In this document: one piece after another, positions 14,382 through 20,772 of the stretch
Numbering within the stretch: the stretch's first letter is position 1
Layout of the letters: each line of letters opens with the position of its first letter
Assembly (NCBI GenBank): GCA_000720805.1
Contig: JODI01000040.1
Coordinates: 15,309 to 79,308 of the forward strand
DNA length: 64,000 nucleotides
From: Streptomyces violaceoruber
Lineage (GTDB): Bacteria; Actinomycetota; Actinomycetes; Streptomycetales; Streptomycetaceae
Reading direction: 5' to 3'
Notes under the pieces: generated by a model
Seen by the model: only the letters and a program-made list of their open reading frames with translations
What the model was told of the DNA's origin: nothing
Database searches by the model: none
Made by a program: the position numbers and the translations under genes

Positions 14382-14436
14382 CCTCGTTCTTTCACCAGCA
14401 CGCTCGTCCACCTTGCCTCAATTGAGCGAAGCACGC

Positions 14437-14600
14437 TTCGACCGTGTCGACCTCGCCCGTGTCCACGGCCGCCGCCGACGACGGCCGGCTCCGCATGGCT
14501 CCGCATCCGTGTCGACCTCGCCCGTGTCCACGGCCGCCGCCCCGATCCGGTCCGACGTCGCTCTCACGCGGCATTGACGTCGCTCTCACGCGGCATTTAC
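14437..14600. repeat. Two families of direct repeats before the GMC remnant
   Basis: A unit of about 34 bp beginning CGTGTCGACCTCGCCCGTGT occurs at about 14442 and again at about 14508. A second unit, GACGTCGCTCTCACGCGG plus CATT, is repeated back to back at about 14554-14599. They are followed by an A+T-rich stretch (14600-14670) unlike the surrounding DNA. No gene was seen in 14382-14671. The repeats and base shift mark the edge of the inserted cassette. Confidence 0.75.
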
Positions 14601-14671
14601 GGGGCATTCTTTAATTCGTTACTCAATTATTTAAAGGCCAGAATGTGGCAACTCGAACAATGCCATAAAAG

Positions 14672-15430
14672 ATGCATCTGGGGCCCGCGCCTGCGAAACT
14701 CAGAGGAAAGCGTGCCCCCATCGGGAACGCCGAAGTCACCCTGCCGCTGCAGCCCGTGTGGACCGGCAACGGTGCCCAGCAGCCCTCCACCGCGATCGGC
14801 TCCCTGCAACTGCGCGACCTGTACGTGGTCGACGACCCCGCCACCCCGGTCACCAAGGCCGGCAAGTTCTCCGTGTACGACCCCTACACGTGCGTGCCGC
14901 CGGTCCGGCTCGTCGAGGGCGCCGCGCTCGGACCCGGCCGCGGCAGCCTGTGGGGCGAGGACCTGTACACCTACCTCGACGAACTGCGTCACCAGGGCGG
15001 CGTCTACTTCTCCTTCACGGGGGAGGCGCTCTCCCTGTACGACAACCGGGTCGAACTCGACCCCGACGTCACCGACCCGTGGGGCATGCCCGCCACCCGA
15101 ATCTGGTACCGGCACCACGCCTACGACCTGGCCGCCGCCCGCTACGCCATCGATCGCGTGGTGCGGGTGATGGGGGACGCGGGCGGCGAGCTGCGCGGCT
15201 ACGACGTCCCCGGCACGGAGAACCCAGGCTACGGACACGTACAAGGCACGCTGCGCGCCGGCACCGATCCCGGCTCCTCGGTGCTCGACGAGAACTGCCA
15301 GTCGCACACCGTCTCCGGGCTCTATGTCCTCGACCGCGCGTTCATGCCGACCGCAGGCGCCTCGAACCCCACCCTGACCCTTCTCGCCAACGCCTACCGG
15401 GTGTGCGAGCAACTCCCGGACCCCGACTGA
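14672..15430 (+). pseudogene. C-terminal remnant of a GMC-family oxidoreductase
   Basis: The open frame of up to 252 residues matches only the substrate-binding C-terminal half of glucose-methanol-choline oxidoreductases. It has NRVELDPDVTDPWGMPATR, the catalytic-His region GHVQGTLRAGTDPGSSVLD and the end motif SGLYVLDRAFMPTAGASNPTLTLLANAYR. The N-terminal FAD-binding Rossmann part (GxGxxG and the 200 residues after it) is absent, and no trace of it lies in the 290 bp upstream, where instead there are repeats and A+T-rich DNA. ATG 14672 has no ribosome site and is probably chance. It reads in the same direction as the next three genes, so the intact form was likely the first gene of that cassette. 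Confidence 0.8.
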
Positions 15431-15500
15431 GGCGCACGCCCACGACGAGCAACCGACACACCGACACCGGCCGACCGGGAACCTCTCGAAAGGCAGCACC

Positions 15501-16709
15501 ATGGACACCCTCGACGAGCGGGTCGACATCGCCCGCGCCCTGCTGTCCGCCGGGATCACCCCGGCCGACCTCGAACTGTCGCCAGACCTGGCCGCGGCGC
15601 CGGAAGGCCCCGTCGTCGCCGTCGACCTCGGAATCGCCTTCCCCGACGGGCTCGCGCCCGTCCCCCGGCCCTTCGACGTCGAACCGTCCCCCGACGCCGC
15701 CCTGCCTCGCGCCGACGTCGTCGTGATCACCTGGACCGTCGCCGAGCAGAACGCCCTCGCCGACGTGTTCACCCGAGGCTTCGGGCGCCTGCGCTGGTAT
15801 CGGTACACCCGCCGCTTCGAGGAGCACTACCGGCCGCTGATCAGAGGCGGAGCGCCTTCGCTCGCCGCCCGCCCGCCACGCCTGGGCTCGTACTTCCCCG
15901 CCAAGCTCGGCGACCTGGACGTGCTGTGCGTGAAGTCCGAACTCCACCTCAACCAGGACGGTCTCAAGACCGGCGAAGGCACCGCCACGCTGCCCGTCAG
16001 GGACTTCTTCGAGCAGATCATCGAGGAGGTCCGGCCGCGAGTGATCGCCACCATCGGCACCTCGGGCAGCGTCTTCGGCGACTTCCCCCTGGGGGACGTG
16101 GTGGTCACGCGCGCGGCGAAGTTCCGCTGCCAGAAGGAGTTCCGCAACGAGGACTTCAACGGCCGGACGTTCCAGAGCGACTGGACCCTCCCGCTCGGCC
16201 GGATCGACGACGCGCAAAAGCTGATGCGCGGCTTCGCCGACCGGCTCACCGAACCACCGCTCGGCCCACCGTCCACCCGCTTCCCCTTCACCGGGCCGCT
16301 GATCGAGCCGCCCGGCAACTACCCGACCGTGCGCATCGAGCAGGGCGCGCGCGACATGCCCGAGTTCCACCCGATTCTGACCACCGACTACTTCGAGTTC
16401 GGCACGTCCACGAACGGCCTGGAACACGAGGGAGCGGCCGTCGAGATGGGCGACGCGGCGCTCGGTCTGGCCTGCGCCGGCCTTACCGACGCGGGCTCCG
16501 ATCACGTGCCCGACTGGGTGGTGGTCCGCAACATGTCCGACCCCCAGATCAACGGCGAACTCCCCACTCGCCAATTCCGCCTCAACCAGCAGACGATGTG
16601 GGCGGTGTCCTACTACGAGTCCTACGGCTACTGGACCAGCGTCTGCGGCGCGCTCACCACGTGGGGCCTGCTCGCGGGACTCTCCGAGGCGGGCATCGAC
16701 GATGCCTGA
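15501..16709 (+). CDS. Nucleoside phosphorylase/nucleosidase-fold protein
   Basis: 402 residues. Several points fit the MTA/SAH-nucleosidase type of the phosphorylase superfamily. There is a first strand VVVITWTVAEQNALADVF, a glycine turn VIATIGTSGSV followed by FPLGDVVVT, and a late ME-like element AAVEMGDAALGLA near residue 314. A VRNMSDPQ near residue 346 has its Asp where nucleosidases have the acid that protonates the base. It is about 170 residues longer than simple nucleosidases, mostly in an N-terminal region and an insertion around 130-180. Activity is likely but the substrate is unknown. ATG 15501 has GAAAGG upstream; its stop overlaps the start of the next gene by 8 bp, so the two are coupled. 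Confidence 0.72.
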   Translation: MDTLDERVDIARALLSAGITPADLELSPDLAAAPEGPVVAVDLGIAFPDGLAPVPRPFDVEPSPDAALPRADVVVITWTVAEQNALADVFTRGFGRLRWYRYTRRFEEHYRPLIRGGAPSLAARPPRLGSYFPAKLGDLDVLCVKSELHLNQDGLKTGEGTATLPVRDFFEQIIEEVRPRVIATIGTSGSVFGDFPLGDVVVTRAAKFRCQKEFRNEDFNGRTFQSDWTLPLGRIDDAQKLMRGFADRLTEPPLGPPSTRFPFTGPLIEPPGNYPTVRIEQGARDMPEFHPILTTDYFEFGTSTNGLEHEGAAVEMGDAALGLACAGLTDAGSDHVPDWVVVRNMSDPQINGELPTRQFRLNQQTMWAVSYYESYGYWTSVCGALTTWGLLAGLSEAGIDDA

Positions 16710-18003
16710 CCCGCCGGCTGTCACCCGGCTCCCCATCGAGGTGGAGCTGCTGTTCGAGCTCATGCCGTGCAATGCGTTGCGCACCTCGCAGTACGCCGGA
16801 CCCGGAGCCCATCCGTGCGCCTACTTCCGCTCGTGGGGCACCTACCACGCCTACGACTACGACGCCGACGAGCCGCCGCCGGACGCCTCGATCGTGCGTC
16901 CCTCGCACTACACCGGCCGGATGACGCCGCTGCCGGAACCGTTGTCCGGTTGCCGCAAGGCCCCGATCCTCGCCGTCGGAATCAACCCGAACCTCCCGGG
17001 CTGGTGGCCCGACAGCCACGGCTCGCTCACCCCCGACTTCGACTCCGCGCGCCAATACGCGCACTACTTCCGCCACCGAGGAGTGTTCAAGCCCGAACTG
17101 CCCGACGACGCGTACCGTGCCTTCGGCGGCGGACCCGACGACGATCCCCTGGCCGGGGTCCCGCTCACCGTGGCCGAGGACGCGCGGGGCCGCCGCGAGA
17201 TCGCGGTTCGCGAGCAGCCGCAGCGCATGTACCTCGTCTACCAGCAACTGCTGGACGCCCTCGGCGCGGAACTGGGACTCGACCCGGGCATACTCAACGT
17301 CGGCGAGGACCTGTCATACGGCAACATGGTCGCCTGCGCCTCGGCCAAGTGGACCACCCGACCCGATCCGCACGATCCGGCCCTTCCGCCGATGACCGAC
17401 GACCAGCGCGTCGGGATCGTCGGAGAGTGCTTCCGCACCCGCCGCCACCTGCTGCGCCAGATGTTCCAGTCGCTGCCTGCCGTGATCCTCGTGCTCGGAC
17501 AGAGCACCGCCAACGCGTTCACCGGCGAACTCGGCGACCGACTGGCACCGGTTCCCACCCCGGACACCCCCATGGCGCAGCTCATGGCGACCGAGATCCG
17601 TCTCACCTACGGCACCCTCGACGACGGCGAGGAATTCGACGCCCGGGTGCTGTTCGCCCCGCATCCCACCGGACACCCCGACGACTACGCGCGGGCCCGG
17701 CCGCTGCTCGTCGAACAACTCCTGCACGAGGCACGCTCCGGCCGACTGGGTCACGACGATCGCATCGGGCACCTGACGCGCCCCCGCGGCTCGTGCTCCT
17801 TCTGCCCTCTGCTCGACATCGGCCCGTGCTCGTACGCCGACGTGCTCACGTCGCTCCCGGGCGGTGGCCCCACCCTCCTCGCCGACGGATCGGCACCCGT
17901 CGGGGCGGAGAAGCGCACCCACCTGCGGCTGCTCGACGGCATCACCGAACGGGCCGCACCCGTCGCCGAGGTCTGGGCACACACCGACGACCGGGAGGAC
18001 TGA
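16702..18003 (+). CDS. Uracil-DNA-glycosylase-like protein with cysteine cluster
   Basis: 433 residues. Weak but ordered similarity to the UDG superfamily: PILAVGINPNLPGWWPD (residues about 90-105, compare the GINPG motif of the MUG/TDG group), VGEDLSYGNMVACASAKW (compare TNMVKC), AVILVLGQSTANAF, and VLFAPHPTGHP near residue 318 (compare the HPSP motif). Extra cysteines at the N-terminus (MPCNAL, HPCAYF) and C-terminus (SCSFCPLLDIGPCSY) could hold an iron-sulfur cluster, as in family 4 enzymes, though the spacing differs. Whether it still cleaves glycosidic bonds cannot be judged. It is translationally coupled to the nucleosidase-like gene. Confidence 0.6.
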   Translation: MPDPPAVTRLPIEVELLFELMPCNALRTSQYAGPGAHPCAYFRSWGTYHAYDYDADEPPPDASIVRPSHYTGRMTPLPEPLSGCRKAPILAVGINPNLPGWWPDSHGSLTPDFDSARQYAHYFRHRGVFKPELPDDAYRAFGGGPDDDPLAGVPLTVAEDARGRREIAVREQPQRMYLVYQQLLDALGAELGLDPGILNVGEDLSYGNMVACASAKWTTRPDPHDPALPPMTDDQRVGIVGECFRTRRHLLRQMFQSLPAVILVLGQSTANAFTGELGDRLAPVPTPDTPMAQLMATEIRLTYGTLDDGEEFDARVLFAPHPTGHPDDYARARPLLVEQLLHEARSGRLGHDDRIGHLTRPRGSCSFCPLLDIGPCSYADVLTSLPGGGPTLLADGSAPVGAEKRTHLRLLDGITERAAPVAEVWAHTDDRED

Positions 18004-18144
18004 GGACCTGAACGCCCCACCGGCGCCACCACCCTCCGAAAGTGAGACCACGACGTCCGGCGGAGTCGCTCGCAGAACAGGCCCTTCCCCACGCGGTCGC
18101 GGTATGCGCCGCCGACCCGACAGCGAAGGGGAGTTGACGACGCC

Positions 18145-18642
18145 TTGAGAATCGCCGCAATCGGCGGCAACGCCCTGCACGCGCCGCCCCACACCCGTAC
18201 CGCGCTGACGTCCGCCTACGTTCAAGGCGCCGACATCCTCGTCTTCAACGTCGCCGTGACCGCCGACGGTCCCCACGGCGCACCGCCGTTCGTCGGCGCC
18301 GAACACGACGAGGACGACGGCTACCGGATCAACTGGAACCTGGGCACGCTCTACGACACCAACCAGTACGGGCCGCCCGTGGGCGACGGCCGTGTGCTCG
18401 CGGCCCGGCTGCGGTTGGAGCGGCGTGGCGCCTACTTCGCCGCGTATACCCGCGACGACGTCGATGCCCACGACTGGGTGTGCGTCGGGACGGTGCGCAA
18501 CGACTCGATGAACGAGACCGTGTACCTGCGGTGTTCCGGCAAGCGGTGGCGCCAGGAGGACGCGGCCGATCCGACGCGCTACTTGCCTGTGCCGGCCAAC
18601 GAGTTCGTCTTCCGGGACCTGCGGATCACGTCCTATTTCTGA
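18145..18642 (+). CDS. GDPD-like N-terminus fused to a beta-sandwich-like domain
   Basis: 165 residues. The first 45 (IAAIGGNALHAPPHTRTAL to ADILVFNVAVTADG) follow the opening strand and helix of glycerophosphodiester phosphodiesterases, with the HRG His replaced by GGN and only the end ADILVFNVAVTADG well kept; the rest of the barrel is missing. The second half (LRLERRGAYFAAYTRDD, HDWVCVGTVRNDSMNETVYLRC, EFVFRDLRITSYF) alternates hydrophobic residues like a concanavalin/DUF1349-type sandwich. The likely start is TTG 18145 with AAGGGGAG 11 nt upstream. It is probably a binding protein rather than an enzyme. It closes the cassette, 140 bp after the UDG-like gene. Confidence 0.5.
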   Translation: MRIAAIGGNALHAPPHTRTALTSAYVQGADILVFNVAVTADGPHGAPPFVGAEHDEDDGYRINWNLGTLYDTNQYGPPVGDGRVLAARLRLERRGAYFAAYTRDDVDAHDWVCVGTVRNDSMNETVYLRCSGKRWRQEDAADPTRYLPVPANEFVFRDLRITSYF

Positions 18643-18654
18643 GTCACCCGTTCG

Positions 18655-18775
18655 GCAGGCGACGGTCCCGGAGGCCCGGTGGTCCTGGTGCTCCCGGCGG
18701 TCCGGTTCTCCCGGTTCTCCCCGGCGGTCCCGGTGCTCCCGCCGGTCCCGGTGGTCCGTCGACTGATGGCGCACG
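18655..18775. repeat. Collagen-like GGTCCCGGT-type 9-bp repeats
   Basis: After the GDPD-like gene the DNA repeats variants of GGTCCCGGTGCTCCCGCC with a 9-bp period. On the minus strand the frame ending at 18644 would read as Gly-Pro-X triplets (GPPGPAGAPGPPGRTGRTG); on the plus strand GPGGPGAPGG appears. No start codon, ribosome site or export signal supports a collagen-like gene here, so it is listed only as a repeat. Confidence 0.6.
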
Positions 18776-18828: not shown

Positions 18829-19503
18829 TCACCCGGTATGGGCGGTGATTCCGGTGAGGATGAGGTCGATGCCGGCGACGAACTCCGCTCGGTCGTCGTG
18901 ATCGCGTAGTTGGCCGGCGACGCTTCGGGTGAACGCGAACTCGTCGGGGTCGAGGTTCGCCCAGGAGGCCGAGACGGTGTCGAGGAACTCGGCCCGGGAG
19001 GTGTCCGGCCGGTGTCCGCGGGCGTTGGCCGCGTTCTGTCCGCCCACTCCGAGGATGTAGTTCAGCAGCGCGGACGCGGCGGTGAACTGGGCGGCGTGGG
19101 GCACTCCGAGCGCTTGGACCTGGCATCCGATGCCTTCGAAGACCCGAAGCAGCGGTGACTGCGCGGGGGCTCGGGCGAGTTGTGTGCCGATCCACGGGTG
19201 GGCGTCCATCGCGTCGAACACTCCGAGGGCGAGGGCGCGGATCGCCTCCCGCGGTTGTGTGCCTGCGGGGTCCGGGGTCAGCGCGCGGGCGACAACGGCG
19301 TCGGTGGCGGCGGTGAGGAGTTCGTCCTTTCCCGCGATGTGCCAGTAGATCGCGCCGGGCCCGGTGGCGAGGCGATCGGCCAGGGCACGGAACGTGAGTC
19401 CGCCCTCGCCCGCCGTGTCGAGGAGTTCGATCGCGGCCTCGACGATGCGCTCCCGGGAGAGCGGTTCCTCTCGTCGCTCTGGGCGACGTGCCCTGCTTGC
19501 CAT
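18829..19503 (-). CDS. TetR-family repressor
   Basis: 224 residues. The DNA-binding helix-turn-helix spans residues 16-62 (RERIVEAAIELLDTAGEGG, FRALADRLATGPGAIYWHI); the C-terminal part resembles TetR_C domains that bind small hydrophobic ligands. ATG 19503 is the natural start. It is divergent from the flavin monooxygenase gene and the 144-bp gap contains three copies of a 15-bp palindrome, so it most likely represses both itself and the monooxygenase until a substrate of the latter is present. Confidence 0.9.
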   Translation of the reverse strand: MASRARRPERREEPLSRERIVEAAIELLDTAGEGGLTFRALADRLATGPGAIYWHIAGKDELLTAATDAVVARALTPDPAGTQPREAIRALALGVFDAMDAHPWIGTQLARAPAQSPLLRVFEGIGCQVQALGVPHAAQFTAASALLNYILGVGGQNAANARGHRPDTSRAEFLDTVSASWANLDPDEFAFTRSVAGQLRDHDDRAEFVAGIDLILTGITAHTG

Positions 19504-19523
19504 GCGTCACATCCTGACATACC

Positions 19524-19601
19524 TGGAACGCCGTTCCATCTTGACAACCCTGGAACGGCGTTCCAAGGTGGGGATGCACTGGAACGGCGTTCCAGTGCAT
19601 C
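19524..19601. promoter_or_regulatory. Three palindromic TetR operators
   Basis: TGGAACGCCGTTCCA at 19524-19538, TGGAACGGCGTTCCA at 19551-19565 and again at 19580-19594. The third copy sits inside a 29-bp perfect palindrome (19573-19601). Centres are 27 and 29 bp apart. A TTGACA (19541-19546) lies between the first two, in place for a -35 reading toward the monooxygenase. The repeated symmetric site between divergent TetR and target genes is what a TetR operator array looks like. Confidence 0.88.
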
Positions 19602-19647
19602 CCTGCCGGGTGTCCCTCCGGCAGACCTTCGACACGCGAGGAACCCC

Positions 19648-20772
19648 ATGACCCCTGACGTCACGATCATCGGCGCCGGCCTCGGCGGACTCACGCTCGC
19701 CCGCGTCCTGCACGTCCACGGCATCCCGGCGACCGTCTACGAGACGGAGCCCTCGCCGACGGCACGCGCGCAGGGCGGGATGCTCGACATCCACGAGCAC
19801 GACGGCCAGTCGGCTCTCCGGGCGGCAGGCCTGATCGACGAGTTCCGCGCCCTCGTCCTGGAGGGCCGCGAAGCGACCCGGGTCCTCGACCGGGACGGGA
19901 CCGTACTGCTCGACATACCCGACGACGGCACGGGCGGACGCCCCGAGGTGCAGCGCGGCGAGCTGCGGCGGATCCTGCTCGACTCACTGCCCGCCGACAC
20001 CGTCCGGTGGGGTCACAAGGTCACCGGCGTACGTGCCCTCGGCGGCGGCCGCCACGAGGTGGCCTTCGCCGACGGAACCACCGTCGTCGCGAACCTGCTG
20101 GTCGGCGCGGACGGCGCATGGTCCCGGGTCCGGCCGCTGCTCTCCGACGCCACACCCGAGTACATCGGCACGTCACTCATCGAGACCTACCTCTTCGACG
20201 TCGACACCCGGCACCCGGCCGGCGCGAAAACGGTCGGCGGCGGGGCGATGTCCGCGCTCGCGCCGGGAAAGGGGATCCTCGCTCACCGGGAGAGCGGCGG
20301 GACCCTCCACACCTATGTGGCGCTCTCCAAACCGCAGGACTGGTTCACCGGTATCGACTTCACCGACCCGGCCACGGCCACCAAGCGGATCGTGCAGGAG
20401 TTCGACGGCTGGGCGCCGGAACTCACCGCACTGATCACCGACGGTGAGACCGCACCGGTCCTGCGCACCCTCAACGCTCTGCCGCCCGGACACCGGTGGG
20501 ACCGGGTGCCGGGGGTGACCCTGCTCGGCGACGCCGCCCACCTCACGCCCCCCTCCGGCGAAGGCGCCAACCTCGCCATGTACGACGGCGCCGAACTCGG
20601 CAAGGCCATCGCCGAGCACCCCGACGACGTCGAGGCGGCGCTCACCGCATACGAGCAGGCGCTGTTCCCCCGCAGTGCCGCGGCCGCCACCGAAGCCGCC
20701 CGCATCCAGGACATCTGCTTCGGCGACAACGCCCCCCACAGCCTGATCGACATGTTCACCGGACACGCGTAA
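19648..20772 (+). CDS. FAD-dependent aromatic monooxygenase (TetX/PHBH-like)
   Basis: 374 residues. Single-component class A flavin monooxygenase: the ADP-binding GAGLGGLTLARVL at the N-terminus, the DG motif in LLVGADGAWSRVRPLL and the FAD-ribityl motif GDAAHLTPPSGEGANLA near residue 295. Such enzymes hydroxylate aromatic or polycyclic compounds using NAD(P)H and O2; the TetX group inactivates tetracyclines. Substrate is not predictable. ATG 19648 was taken because GAGGAA precedes it and the GAGLGG begins at residue 8. Repression by the divergent TetR through the three operators is likely. Confidence 0.88.
   Translation: MTPDVTIIGAGLGGLTLARVLHVHGIPATVYETEPSPTARAQGGMLDIHEHDGQSALRAAGLIDEFRALVLEGREATRVLDRDGTVLLDIPDDGTGGRPEVQRGELRRILLDSLPADTVRWGHKVTGVRALGGGRHEVAFADGTTVVANLLVGADGAWSRVRPLLSDATPEYIGTSLIETYLFDVDTRHPAGAKTVGGGAMSALAPGKGILAHRESGGTLHTYVALSKPQDWFTGIDFTDPATATKRIVQEFDGWAPELTALITDGETAPVLRTLNALPPGHRWDRVPGVTLLGDAAHLTPPSGEGANLAMYDGAELGKAIAEHPDDVEAALTAYEQALFPRSAAAATEAARIQDICFGDNAPHSLIDMFTGHA

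What the first reader, a model, noticed from the sequence alone, without database searches (positions are those of the whole stretch)
14672..18642. Four-gene cassette pairing a nucleosidase-like and a DNA-glycosylase-like protein
Seen: a GMC oxidoreductase remnant, then a phosphorylase-fold protein that keeps the VEM and SD catalytic points, overlapping by 8 bp with a UDG-like protein (GINPN, HPTGH, cysteine-rich ends), then a GDPD-like/beta-sandwich protein. Known: nucleoside-phosphorylase folds and UDG folds each cleave N-glycosidic bonds. Inference: two different base-cleaving folds made in fixed ratio could act on modified nucleosides or DNA (defence, or a nucleoside-type metabolite). I know of no described system with this set. 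The direct repeats and A+T-rich edge suggest acquisition.
Basis: partly seen in the sequence, partly recalled or inferred. Interest (0 to 1): 0.72.

Follow-up and report, generated by a model that had tools for sequence, protein, structure and literature searches.

The report
Mobile nucleosidase and base-glycosylase gene cassette
Two tightly coupled genes that look like enzymes for cutting bases off nucleosides or DNA form the core of a rare, mobile multi-enzyme gene cassette scattered over several bacterial phyla; the copy here has lost most of its partner genes, and what the cassette does is still unknown.

Summary
B (15501-16709) has an MTA/SAH-nucleosidase fold with its catalytic residues. 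[quoted passage not shown] Of 18 loci from other genomes that carry C, 17 have B directly upstream, in five phyla, and the two co-diverge (Mantel r 0.93). B also occurs without C (2 cases). Around them sit exchangeable modules: HAD-hemerythrin, Gluconate_2-dh3 and GMC oxidoreductase, GDPD-type protein, guanine-deaminase-like amidohydrolase (fused to C in 8 of 18), S8 protease, a second UDG. The window holds a decayed copy: A is the C-terminal part of the GMC gene, D an internal-deletion product of the GDPD gene; a same-species genome keeps only a deletion scar there. Both are rare: C in 4 of 392 genomes of the genus, B in 2 of 396 of the phylum, own genome included. Ten text searches showed no description. 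Best reading: an intracellular base- and nucleoside-attacking module, perhaps anti-phage (compare Brig glycosylases, Detocs nucleosidases). The defence role is inferred and defence-island linkage is not shown; a nucleoside catabolic or detoxification pathway is the main rival.

The parts
14407..14716 (.). Left edge of the island: 35-nt and 22-nt direct repeats, then an A+T-rich stretch (about 14600-14699); no collinear match in the same-species genome G201 or in the three other Streptomyces cassette genomes compared
14672..15430 (+). A: C-terminal part of a GMC oxidoreductase (remnant); N-terminal half missing
   Evidence: PF05199 E 2.6e-21; 94-95% identical to the C-terminal part of the GMC genes in L003 and L004, 91% in L005
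15501..16709 (+). B: MTA/SAH-nucleosidase-fold protein, intact; E82, E315 (VEM) and D347 (SD) invariant in 23 aligned sequences
16702..18003 (+). C: family-4-UDG-fold protein, intact; GINPN (N95), PHPTG (H321) and Cys 23, 39, 84, 243, 365, 368, 376 conserved
16702..16709 (+). 8-base overlap of the end of B with the start of C (translational coupling likely)
18145..18270 (+). D, first part: residues 1-42 of the GDPD-type protein, joined directly to its end
18271..18642 (+).
18660..18770 (.). Right edge: G+C-rich direct repeats; collinearity with G201 resumes near 18741

Best explanation
The window carries a decaying copy of a horizontally moving multi-enzyme cassette whose core is B plus C. Shown: gene content, close coupling, folds, conserved catalytic residues, mobility, decay. 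Inferred: B hydrolyses the N-glycosidic bond of a nucleoside or nucleotide (a Glu at the place of the water-activating Glu of MTAN is kept, which fits a hydrolase better than a phosphorylase). C, possibly with an iron-sulphur cluster, removes a base from DNA or from a nucleotide. The amidohydrolase often fused to C deaminates the base before or after release. The GMC/Gluconate_2-dh3 pair oxidises a sugar, either of the nucleoside or a glycosyl decoration on the base. The protease processes or switches the system. Because none of the recurrent modules is a transporter and B and C show no obvious signal peptide, the target is probably inside the cell. The most likely role is attack on modified nucleobases or nucleotides of phages or other mobile elements. 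Stepwise confidence: real conserved cassette 0.95; N-glycosidic chemistry 0.8; intracellular nucleic-acid or nucleotide target 0.6; defence role 0.4.
For: Pair: B upstream of C in 17 of 18 C-bearing loci; nearest possible C start -8 to +21 nt from the B stop in the 18 loci measured, window included (the nearest start codon was taken, which favours small gaps); Mantel r 0.932, 0 of 2000 permutations as high; 13 contig lengths shared by the B and C hit lists, mean 0.95 and maximum 5 at shifted lengths. Folds and residues. Amidohydrolase HxH, H, H, D and HxxE kept in 11 of 11 aligned (8 from C-bearing loci, 3 from plasmids without C); S8 triad in 8 of 8 aligned (that these are the catalytic residues is recalled). 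Recurrent UDG-fold plus amidohydrolase coupling: C fused to it in 8 of 18 loci, and on a Variovorax plasmid it sits beside a family-1-like UDG. Sugar oxidation: closest solved relative of the GMC is a glucose dehydrogenase, E 6e-26; a 3-keto-disaccharide-hydrolase domain lies upstream in Azospirillum. Patchy and mobile; conjugative plasmid. Precedents: Brig1's best structural match is the same Sulfolobus family-4 UDG, 4ZBY, and the Brig3 operon pairs a glycosylase with a sugar-stripping hydrolase (PMC11078745, PMC13160076, passages). PF01048-fold proteins degrade (d)ATP in Detocs and CBASS (PMC10952713, table passage).
Against: Linkage to known defence genes is not shown. B occurs without C in G548, a genome 87% complete, and in the viral-collection contig L044. 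No sensor or NTPase switch recurs in the cassettes. GMC, hemerythrin, tyrosinase/hemocyanin, M4 and LodA-like neighbours look more like metabolism than immunity. A molybdopterin oxidase gene of the xanthine-dehydrogenase type lies beside B-C, on the other strand, in an Acidobacteria MAG. Transporters do lie in some flanks (for example siderophore genes beyond an IS in Azospirillum), and the P460-like proteins of the related amidohydrolase loci begin like secreted proteins (sequences). No C relative in phage records or in a pattern-based scan of viral contigs. C is 433 aa against about 200 for family-4 UDGs, so DNA binding is uncertain. PADLOC: B best E 0.011, C none.
Confidence: 0.4

Rival explanations
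1. A catabolic or detoxification pathway for an unusual nucleoside or nucleotide conjugate (for example a glycosylated or peptidyl nucleoside): protease, phosphodiesterase, sugar oxidase, nucleosidase, glycosylase and base deaminase act in turn on a small molecule.
For: The enzyme set reads as a plausible dismantling order; deaminase plus MTAN-fold hydrolase is also the logic of the futalosine pathway (recalled), and futalosine hydrolase and aminofutalosine deaminase appear among the matches of B and of the amidohydrolase. The GMC resembles glucose dehydrogenase. A xanthine-dehydrogenase-type gene is adjacent in L006. 72 of 120 GDPD homologues keep the catalytic His.
Against: None of the recurrent modules is a transporter, though some flanks hold transporters; a UDG fold is unexpected for a small molecule; gene content is too variable for a linear pathway; the GDPD domain lacks the first catalytic His in all 7 cassette copies aligned.
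Confidence: 0.27
2. Biosynthesis of a nucleoside-like secondary metabolite or signal.
For: Sugar oxidase, amidohydrolase, and ferritin-like and cytochrome P460-like partners in related amidohydrolase loci; Streptomyces hosts.
Against: No group-transfer, ligase or carrier-protein gene among the recurrent modules; B and C catalytic residues are of the cleaving type.
Confidence: 0.1
3. A DNA-repair module for a particular lesion (base excision by C, clean-up of the released base or nucleotide by B and the amidohydrolase).
For: Family-4 UDG fold with both motifs conserved.
Against: C in 4 of 392 genomes of the genus and only in the centre genome of samples of 251 and 337; the GMC, GDPD and protease partners do not fit.
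Confidence: 0.1
4. Cargo enzymes of a contractile injection system.
For: In L012 and L015 (Mycobacteriaceae) a BTAD regulator, sheath, hub, PAAR and gp25-like genes follow C.
Against: Of 15 carrier genomes 8 have a sheath match, on the cassette contig only in those two related ones; 7, the window's genome among them, have none. Other contigs of fragmented genomes could still be near.
Confidence: 0.05
5. A dead remnant with no function in this strain.
For: A and D are truncated; no close HAD-hemerythrin copy and only generic S8 matches elsewhere in the genome.
Against: B and C are intact, dN/dS 0.15-0.40 against relatives; the bare B-C pair also occurs in L006. But A and D remnants show similar ratios (0.14-0.25), so decay may be recent.
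Confidence: 0.08

Closest known systems
Family-4 uracil-DNA glycosylases (PDB 4zbx/4zby, 1ui0) and UdgX
   Different: 433 aa against about 200; no sequence match to any PDB chain at E 10; an extra CxxC-x7-C near the C-terminus; coupling to a nucleosidase and fusion to an amidohydrolase
Brig1 and Brig3/BapA anti-phage glycosylases
   Same: UDG superfamily; Brig1's best structural match is 4ZBY, as for C; Brig3 sits with a sugar-removing partner
   Different: Brig1 is 261 aa and sufficient alone; no sequence comparison made; different partners; defence-island context not shown for B-C
PF01048 (d)ATP-degrading effectors of Detocs and CBASS (Cap17)
   Same: Phosphorylase-superfamily fold used inside the cell
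   Different: B has an N-terminal extension and insertions; no SLOG, two-component or cyclase partner recognised; Pfam score below cut-off for the window's B, though many relatives carry PF01048
MTA/SAH nucleosidase and futalosine hydrolase
   Different: 12-21% identity in structural alignment; rare accessory gene, not housekeeping; 402 aa
IetAS anti-phage system (S8 peptidase IetS)
   Same: The S8 partner scores on PADLOC IetS models (E 1.4e-23)
   Different: Far below NCBIfam's IteS cut-off (65.8 of 900 bits); no IetA ATPase among the recurrent modules
NTP-dependent conflict systems of Kaur et al. 2020 (PMC7159879)
   Same: That paper mentions phosphorylase-superfamily, subtilisin, trypsin-EAD1 and, rarely, DNA-glycosylase domains (passages); an EAD1-trypsin gene lies next to the L009 cassette
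   Different: No vWA, MoxR, GAP1 or STAND core among the recurrent modules; the paper's text has no 'uracil' or 'GMC'

Membership tests
UDG superfamily (for C) | UDG fold | tested here: met
UDG superfamily (for C) | Motif 1 catalytic Asn/Asp and motif 2 His | tested here: met
   N95 and H321 in 120 of 120 homologues and 12 of 12 loci; that these are the catalytic motifs is recalled
Family-4/5 UDG (for C) | [4Fe-4S] cluster on four cysteines | not testable with these tools
   Seven conserved cysteines, but C23 and C39 do not have the CxxC spacing recalled for family 4
UDG superfamily (for C) | Excision of uracil or a modified base | not tested
   needs protein
MTAN / nucleosidase (for B) | Fold | tested here: met
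MTAN / nucleosidase (for B) | Catalytic Glu (VEM) and Asp (SD) | tested here: met
   E315 and D347 aligned with MTAN, invariant in 23
MTAN / nucleosidase (for B) | Water-activating Glu after strand 1 | tested here: inconclusive
   E82 invariant in 23; its match to the MTAN residue is by position in the model only
MTAN / nucleosidase (for B) | Curated family score | tested here: not met
   Window B: PF01048 19.8 of 25.1 bits; PRK05584 12.3 of 169 bits; many relatives carry PF01048
Brig anti-phage glycosylases | Homology to Brig1 or Brig3 | not tested
   no Brig sequence was at hand
Brig anti-phage glycosylases | Location among defence genes | tested here: inconclusive
   46 chosen proteins scanned, 29 from C-bearing loci; one hit assigned to such a locus, three families not assignable, 25 of 41 families shown
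Detocs / Cap17 | SLOG partner and two-component or cyclase genes | tested here: inconclusive
   none recognised among the genes examined; not every neighbour was scanned
IetAS | S8 protein reaching the family cut-off | tested here: not met
   65.8 and 52.7 of 900 bits
IetAS | IetA ATPase partner | tested here: inconclusive
   none among the recurrent modules; IetA-like only beside the amidohydrolase in L047
Contractile-injection cargo | Linkage to sheath genes | tested here: not met
   same contig in 2 of 15 genomes, one lineage

The most novel reading that the evidence does not exclude
A new, modular, cross-phylum immune system that dismantles hypermodified DNA or nucleotides in stages: a sugar oxidase strips or opens the decoration, a UDG-fold enzyme often fused to a deaminase excises and deaminates the base, a nucleosidase destroys the matching free nucleotides, and an exchangeable protease switches it on.
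Probability: 0.2. Interest if true: 0.9.

Novelty: categorically new. Interest (0 to 1): 0.66.

Why it matters
Two uncharacterised protein families, both with conserved active sites, travel together between phyla along with a deaminase, a sugar oxidase and a protease. If the system acts on phage DNA or nucleotides it would link two separate immune chemistries, base excision and nucleotide hydrolysis, in one operon and add base deamination. If it acts on a small molecule it would define a new nucleoside pathway. Either way the core is only two genes and can be expressed and assayed directly.

Tried and rejected
Chance neighbours: rejected. Strict one-to-one pairing: rejected, B occurs alone in G548 and L044; one search's empty answer is for a genome 87% complete. 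Contractile-injection cargo: suggested by L012 and L015, then tested over 15 genomes and not supported. Phage origin: no C match in 50,697 phage records or in a pattern-based scan of viral contigs; one B-like viral contig. GDPD as a pseudoenzyme throughout: true of the 7 aligned cassette copies, but 72 of 120 wider homologues keep the catalytic His, so withdrawn as a general claim. G201 as a simple empty site: wrong, it holds a deletion scar. Defence enrichment: not shown. That scan took 26 of the 92 neighbour ORFs listed, one further L016 ORF, 2 from L041 and 17 from amidohydrolase-only plasmids (none from L010, L012, L015, L007 or the Streptomyces and Embleya loci), had no random control, gives no per-protein map, and showed 25 of 41 families; attributions are mine from Pfam and record annotation. 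Literature: ten searches; five returned nothing, and no title or abstract listed described this set; the library holds open-licence papers only. PMC8213781 on eCIS was searched for terms: no 'GMC', 'subtilase', 'tyrosinase' or 'glycosylase'. In one search two amidohydrolase queries were taken in the wrong frame, so that column was redone. dN/dS does not separate intact B and C from remnants A and D. Absences in the module table may reflect contig ends or the 10-kb flank (L002, L007 and L009 are cut short).

Full report
What is there. The window lies in a Streptomyces genome by inference: same-genus genomes that carry the cassette have contigs of the lengths of S. hyaluromycini and S. lucensis records. 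Four ORFs read rightwards: A 14672-15430, B 15501-16709, C 16702-18003 and D 18145-18642. To the left are trpS and a 2'-5' RNA ligase/LigT gene; to the right a TetR gene and an FAD monooxygenase.

The pair. A pattern-based scan of species genomes with the C alignment gave 16 named loci: Streptomyces, Embleya, mycobacteria, Mesorhizobium, Massilia, a Methylocystaceae MAG, and Acidobacteria, Bacteroidetes, Deltaproteobacteria and Thermodesulfobacteriota MAGs. A plasmid of Azospirillum argentinense and genome G173 make 18. B lies directly upstream of C in 17 of these 18; L017 has none. The nearest possible C start is -8 to +21 nt from the B stop in the 18 loci measured, the 17 and the window (taking the nearest start favours small gaps). 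B and C distances agree (17 loci, Mantel r 0.932, 0 of 2000 permutations), and the joint tree puts mycobacteria with Proteobacteria, away from Streptomyces, and Embleya inside Streptomyces, so the pair has moved between phyla. In metagenomic hit lists 13 contig lengths are shared by B and C, mean 0.95 and maximum 5 at shifted lengths. The other way round the pairing is weaker: of B copies found through B, G548 (87% complete) shows no C in its genome and the viral-collection contig L044 none.

The cassette. Of the 18 loci (amidohydrolase column): HAD-hemerythrin 8, Gluconate_2-dh3 9, GMC 9 (11 with a second GMC type), GDPD 9, B 17, C 18, amidohydrolase 10 (one cut by a contig end), S8 protease 10 plus one fragment, family-1-like UDG 3 plus one fragment, M4 peptidase 2. 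Flanks are limited, so these are minimum counts. C and the amidohydrolase are one protein in 8 loci. Residue checks: amidohydrolase HxH, H, H, D and HxxE in 11 of 11; S8 triad in 8 of 8; GMC His and Asn in 6 of 6; HAD motif DxR, not DxD, in 6 of 6; GDPD without the first catalytic His in 7 of 7, though 72 of 120 wider homologues keep it. The GMC is closest to glucose and fructose dehydrogenases, whose small-subunit type is Gluconate_2-dh3 (recalled).

Decay in this species. Window A lacks the N-terminal part of the GMC. Window D joins residues 1-42 to the last 123 residues of GDPD. The same-species genome G201 (99% complete) lacks C; at the same site it has about 300 bp of the HAD gene fused to about 80 bp of the GDPD end. 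So a fuller cassette probably once sat here and two strains carry different deletions. S. hyaluromycini keeps only a fragment of S8. No close HAD-hemerythrin copy is found elsewhere in the window's genome, and its S8 hits look generic. In the window and the five Streptomyces and Embleya copies compared (L002-L005, L038) B and C are whole while partners vary.

Rarity. C: 4 of 392 genomes of the genus, 1 of 61 relatives, own genome included; only the centre genome of 251 in a mycobacterial family and of 337 in an alphaproteobacterial class. B: 2 of 396 of the phylum, own included. One copy of C in each of 14 carrier genomes.

Wider family. The amidohydrolase has relatives in 11 plasmid records. 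Without B and C it sits with S41 protease, cytochrome P460 and a UDG-fold protein in Variovorax; with P460-like, GMC, ferritin-like and an IetAS-like pair in Rhizobium johnstonii; near AbiH and a restriction endonuclease in Sinorhizobium. UDG-fold plus deaminase is thus a partnership that recurs with two UDG types.

What it does. The core chemistry is most likely N-glycosidic cleavage twice over, with base deamination and sugar oxidation as helpers. Absence of transporters among the recurrent modules and the apparent lack of signal peptides on B and C (read by eye, not predicted) point to an intracellular target. Rarity, mobility and module exchange resemble defence systems, and there are precedents for each half (Brig glycosylases; (d)ATP-degrading nucleosidases). 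Against it, linkage to known defence genes is not shown, no common trigger is seen, several neighbours look metabolic, and P460-like partners of the sister loci look secreted.

Novelty. None of the ten text searches showed a description (listed under Tried and rejected), and the family libraries used do not name C and name B only below the cut-off. The folds are known; the system, as a set, is not one I can place.

Noticed in passing
L012:14178-19355 and L015:13185-21113: A BTAD regulator followed by contractile-injection genes (sheath, hub, PAAR, gp25-like) downstream of C in two mycobacterial genomes; no sheath match on the cassette contig in 13 other genomes.
   Followed up: yes
L040:2047-3330 and L044:842-2065: B relatives without C: an actinobacterial genome (G548, C not found in the 87% complete genome) and a viral-collection contig.
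   Followed up: partly
L047:12028-22135: Rhizobium johnstonii plasmid: amidohydrolase, P460-like protein, GMC, ferritin-like protein and an IetAS-like ATPase/S8 pair in a row, with toxin-antitoxin genes nearby: perhaps a sister system.
   Followed up: partly
L041:9077-9856: UDG (UNG-like) coding stretch without a listed gene in the Azospirillum plasmid record, between the 954-aa protein and the HAD-hemerythrin gene (the gene table of that collection is incomplete).
   Followed up: no
L016:14138-15001: pAgo-associated nuclease (PF18165/PF18166) about 2.8 kb downstream of C in Mesorhizobium sp. ORS3324.
   Followed up: no
L002:6124-8037: In Embleya a PIG-L deacetylase with a possible propeller domain lies upstream of B where other Streptomyces-type copies have the GMC.
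   Followed up: no
L013:4908-8744: Hemocyanin/tyrosinase-type protein and an M4 peptidase directly upstream of B in Mycolicibacterium stellerae; the L015 flank also has a tyrosinase with a PpoB2 copper-chaperone-type neighbour.
   Followed up: no
window 18829-20772: TetR regulator (minus strand) beside an FAD monooxygenase with weak Tet(X)-family similarity, far below the family cut-off; outside the cassette and collinear in G201.
   Followed up: no
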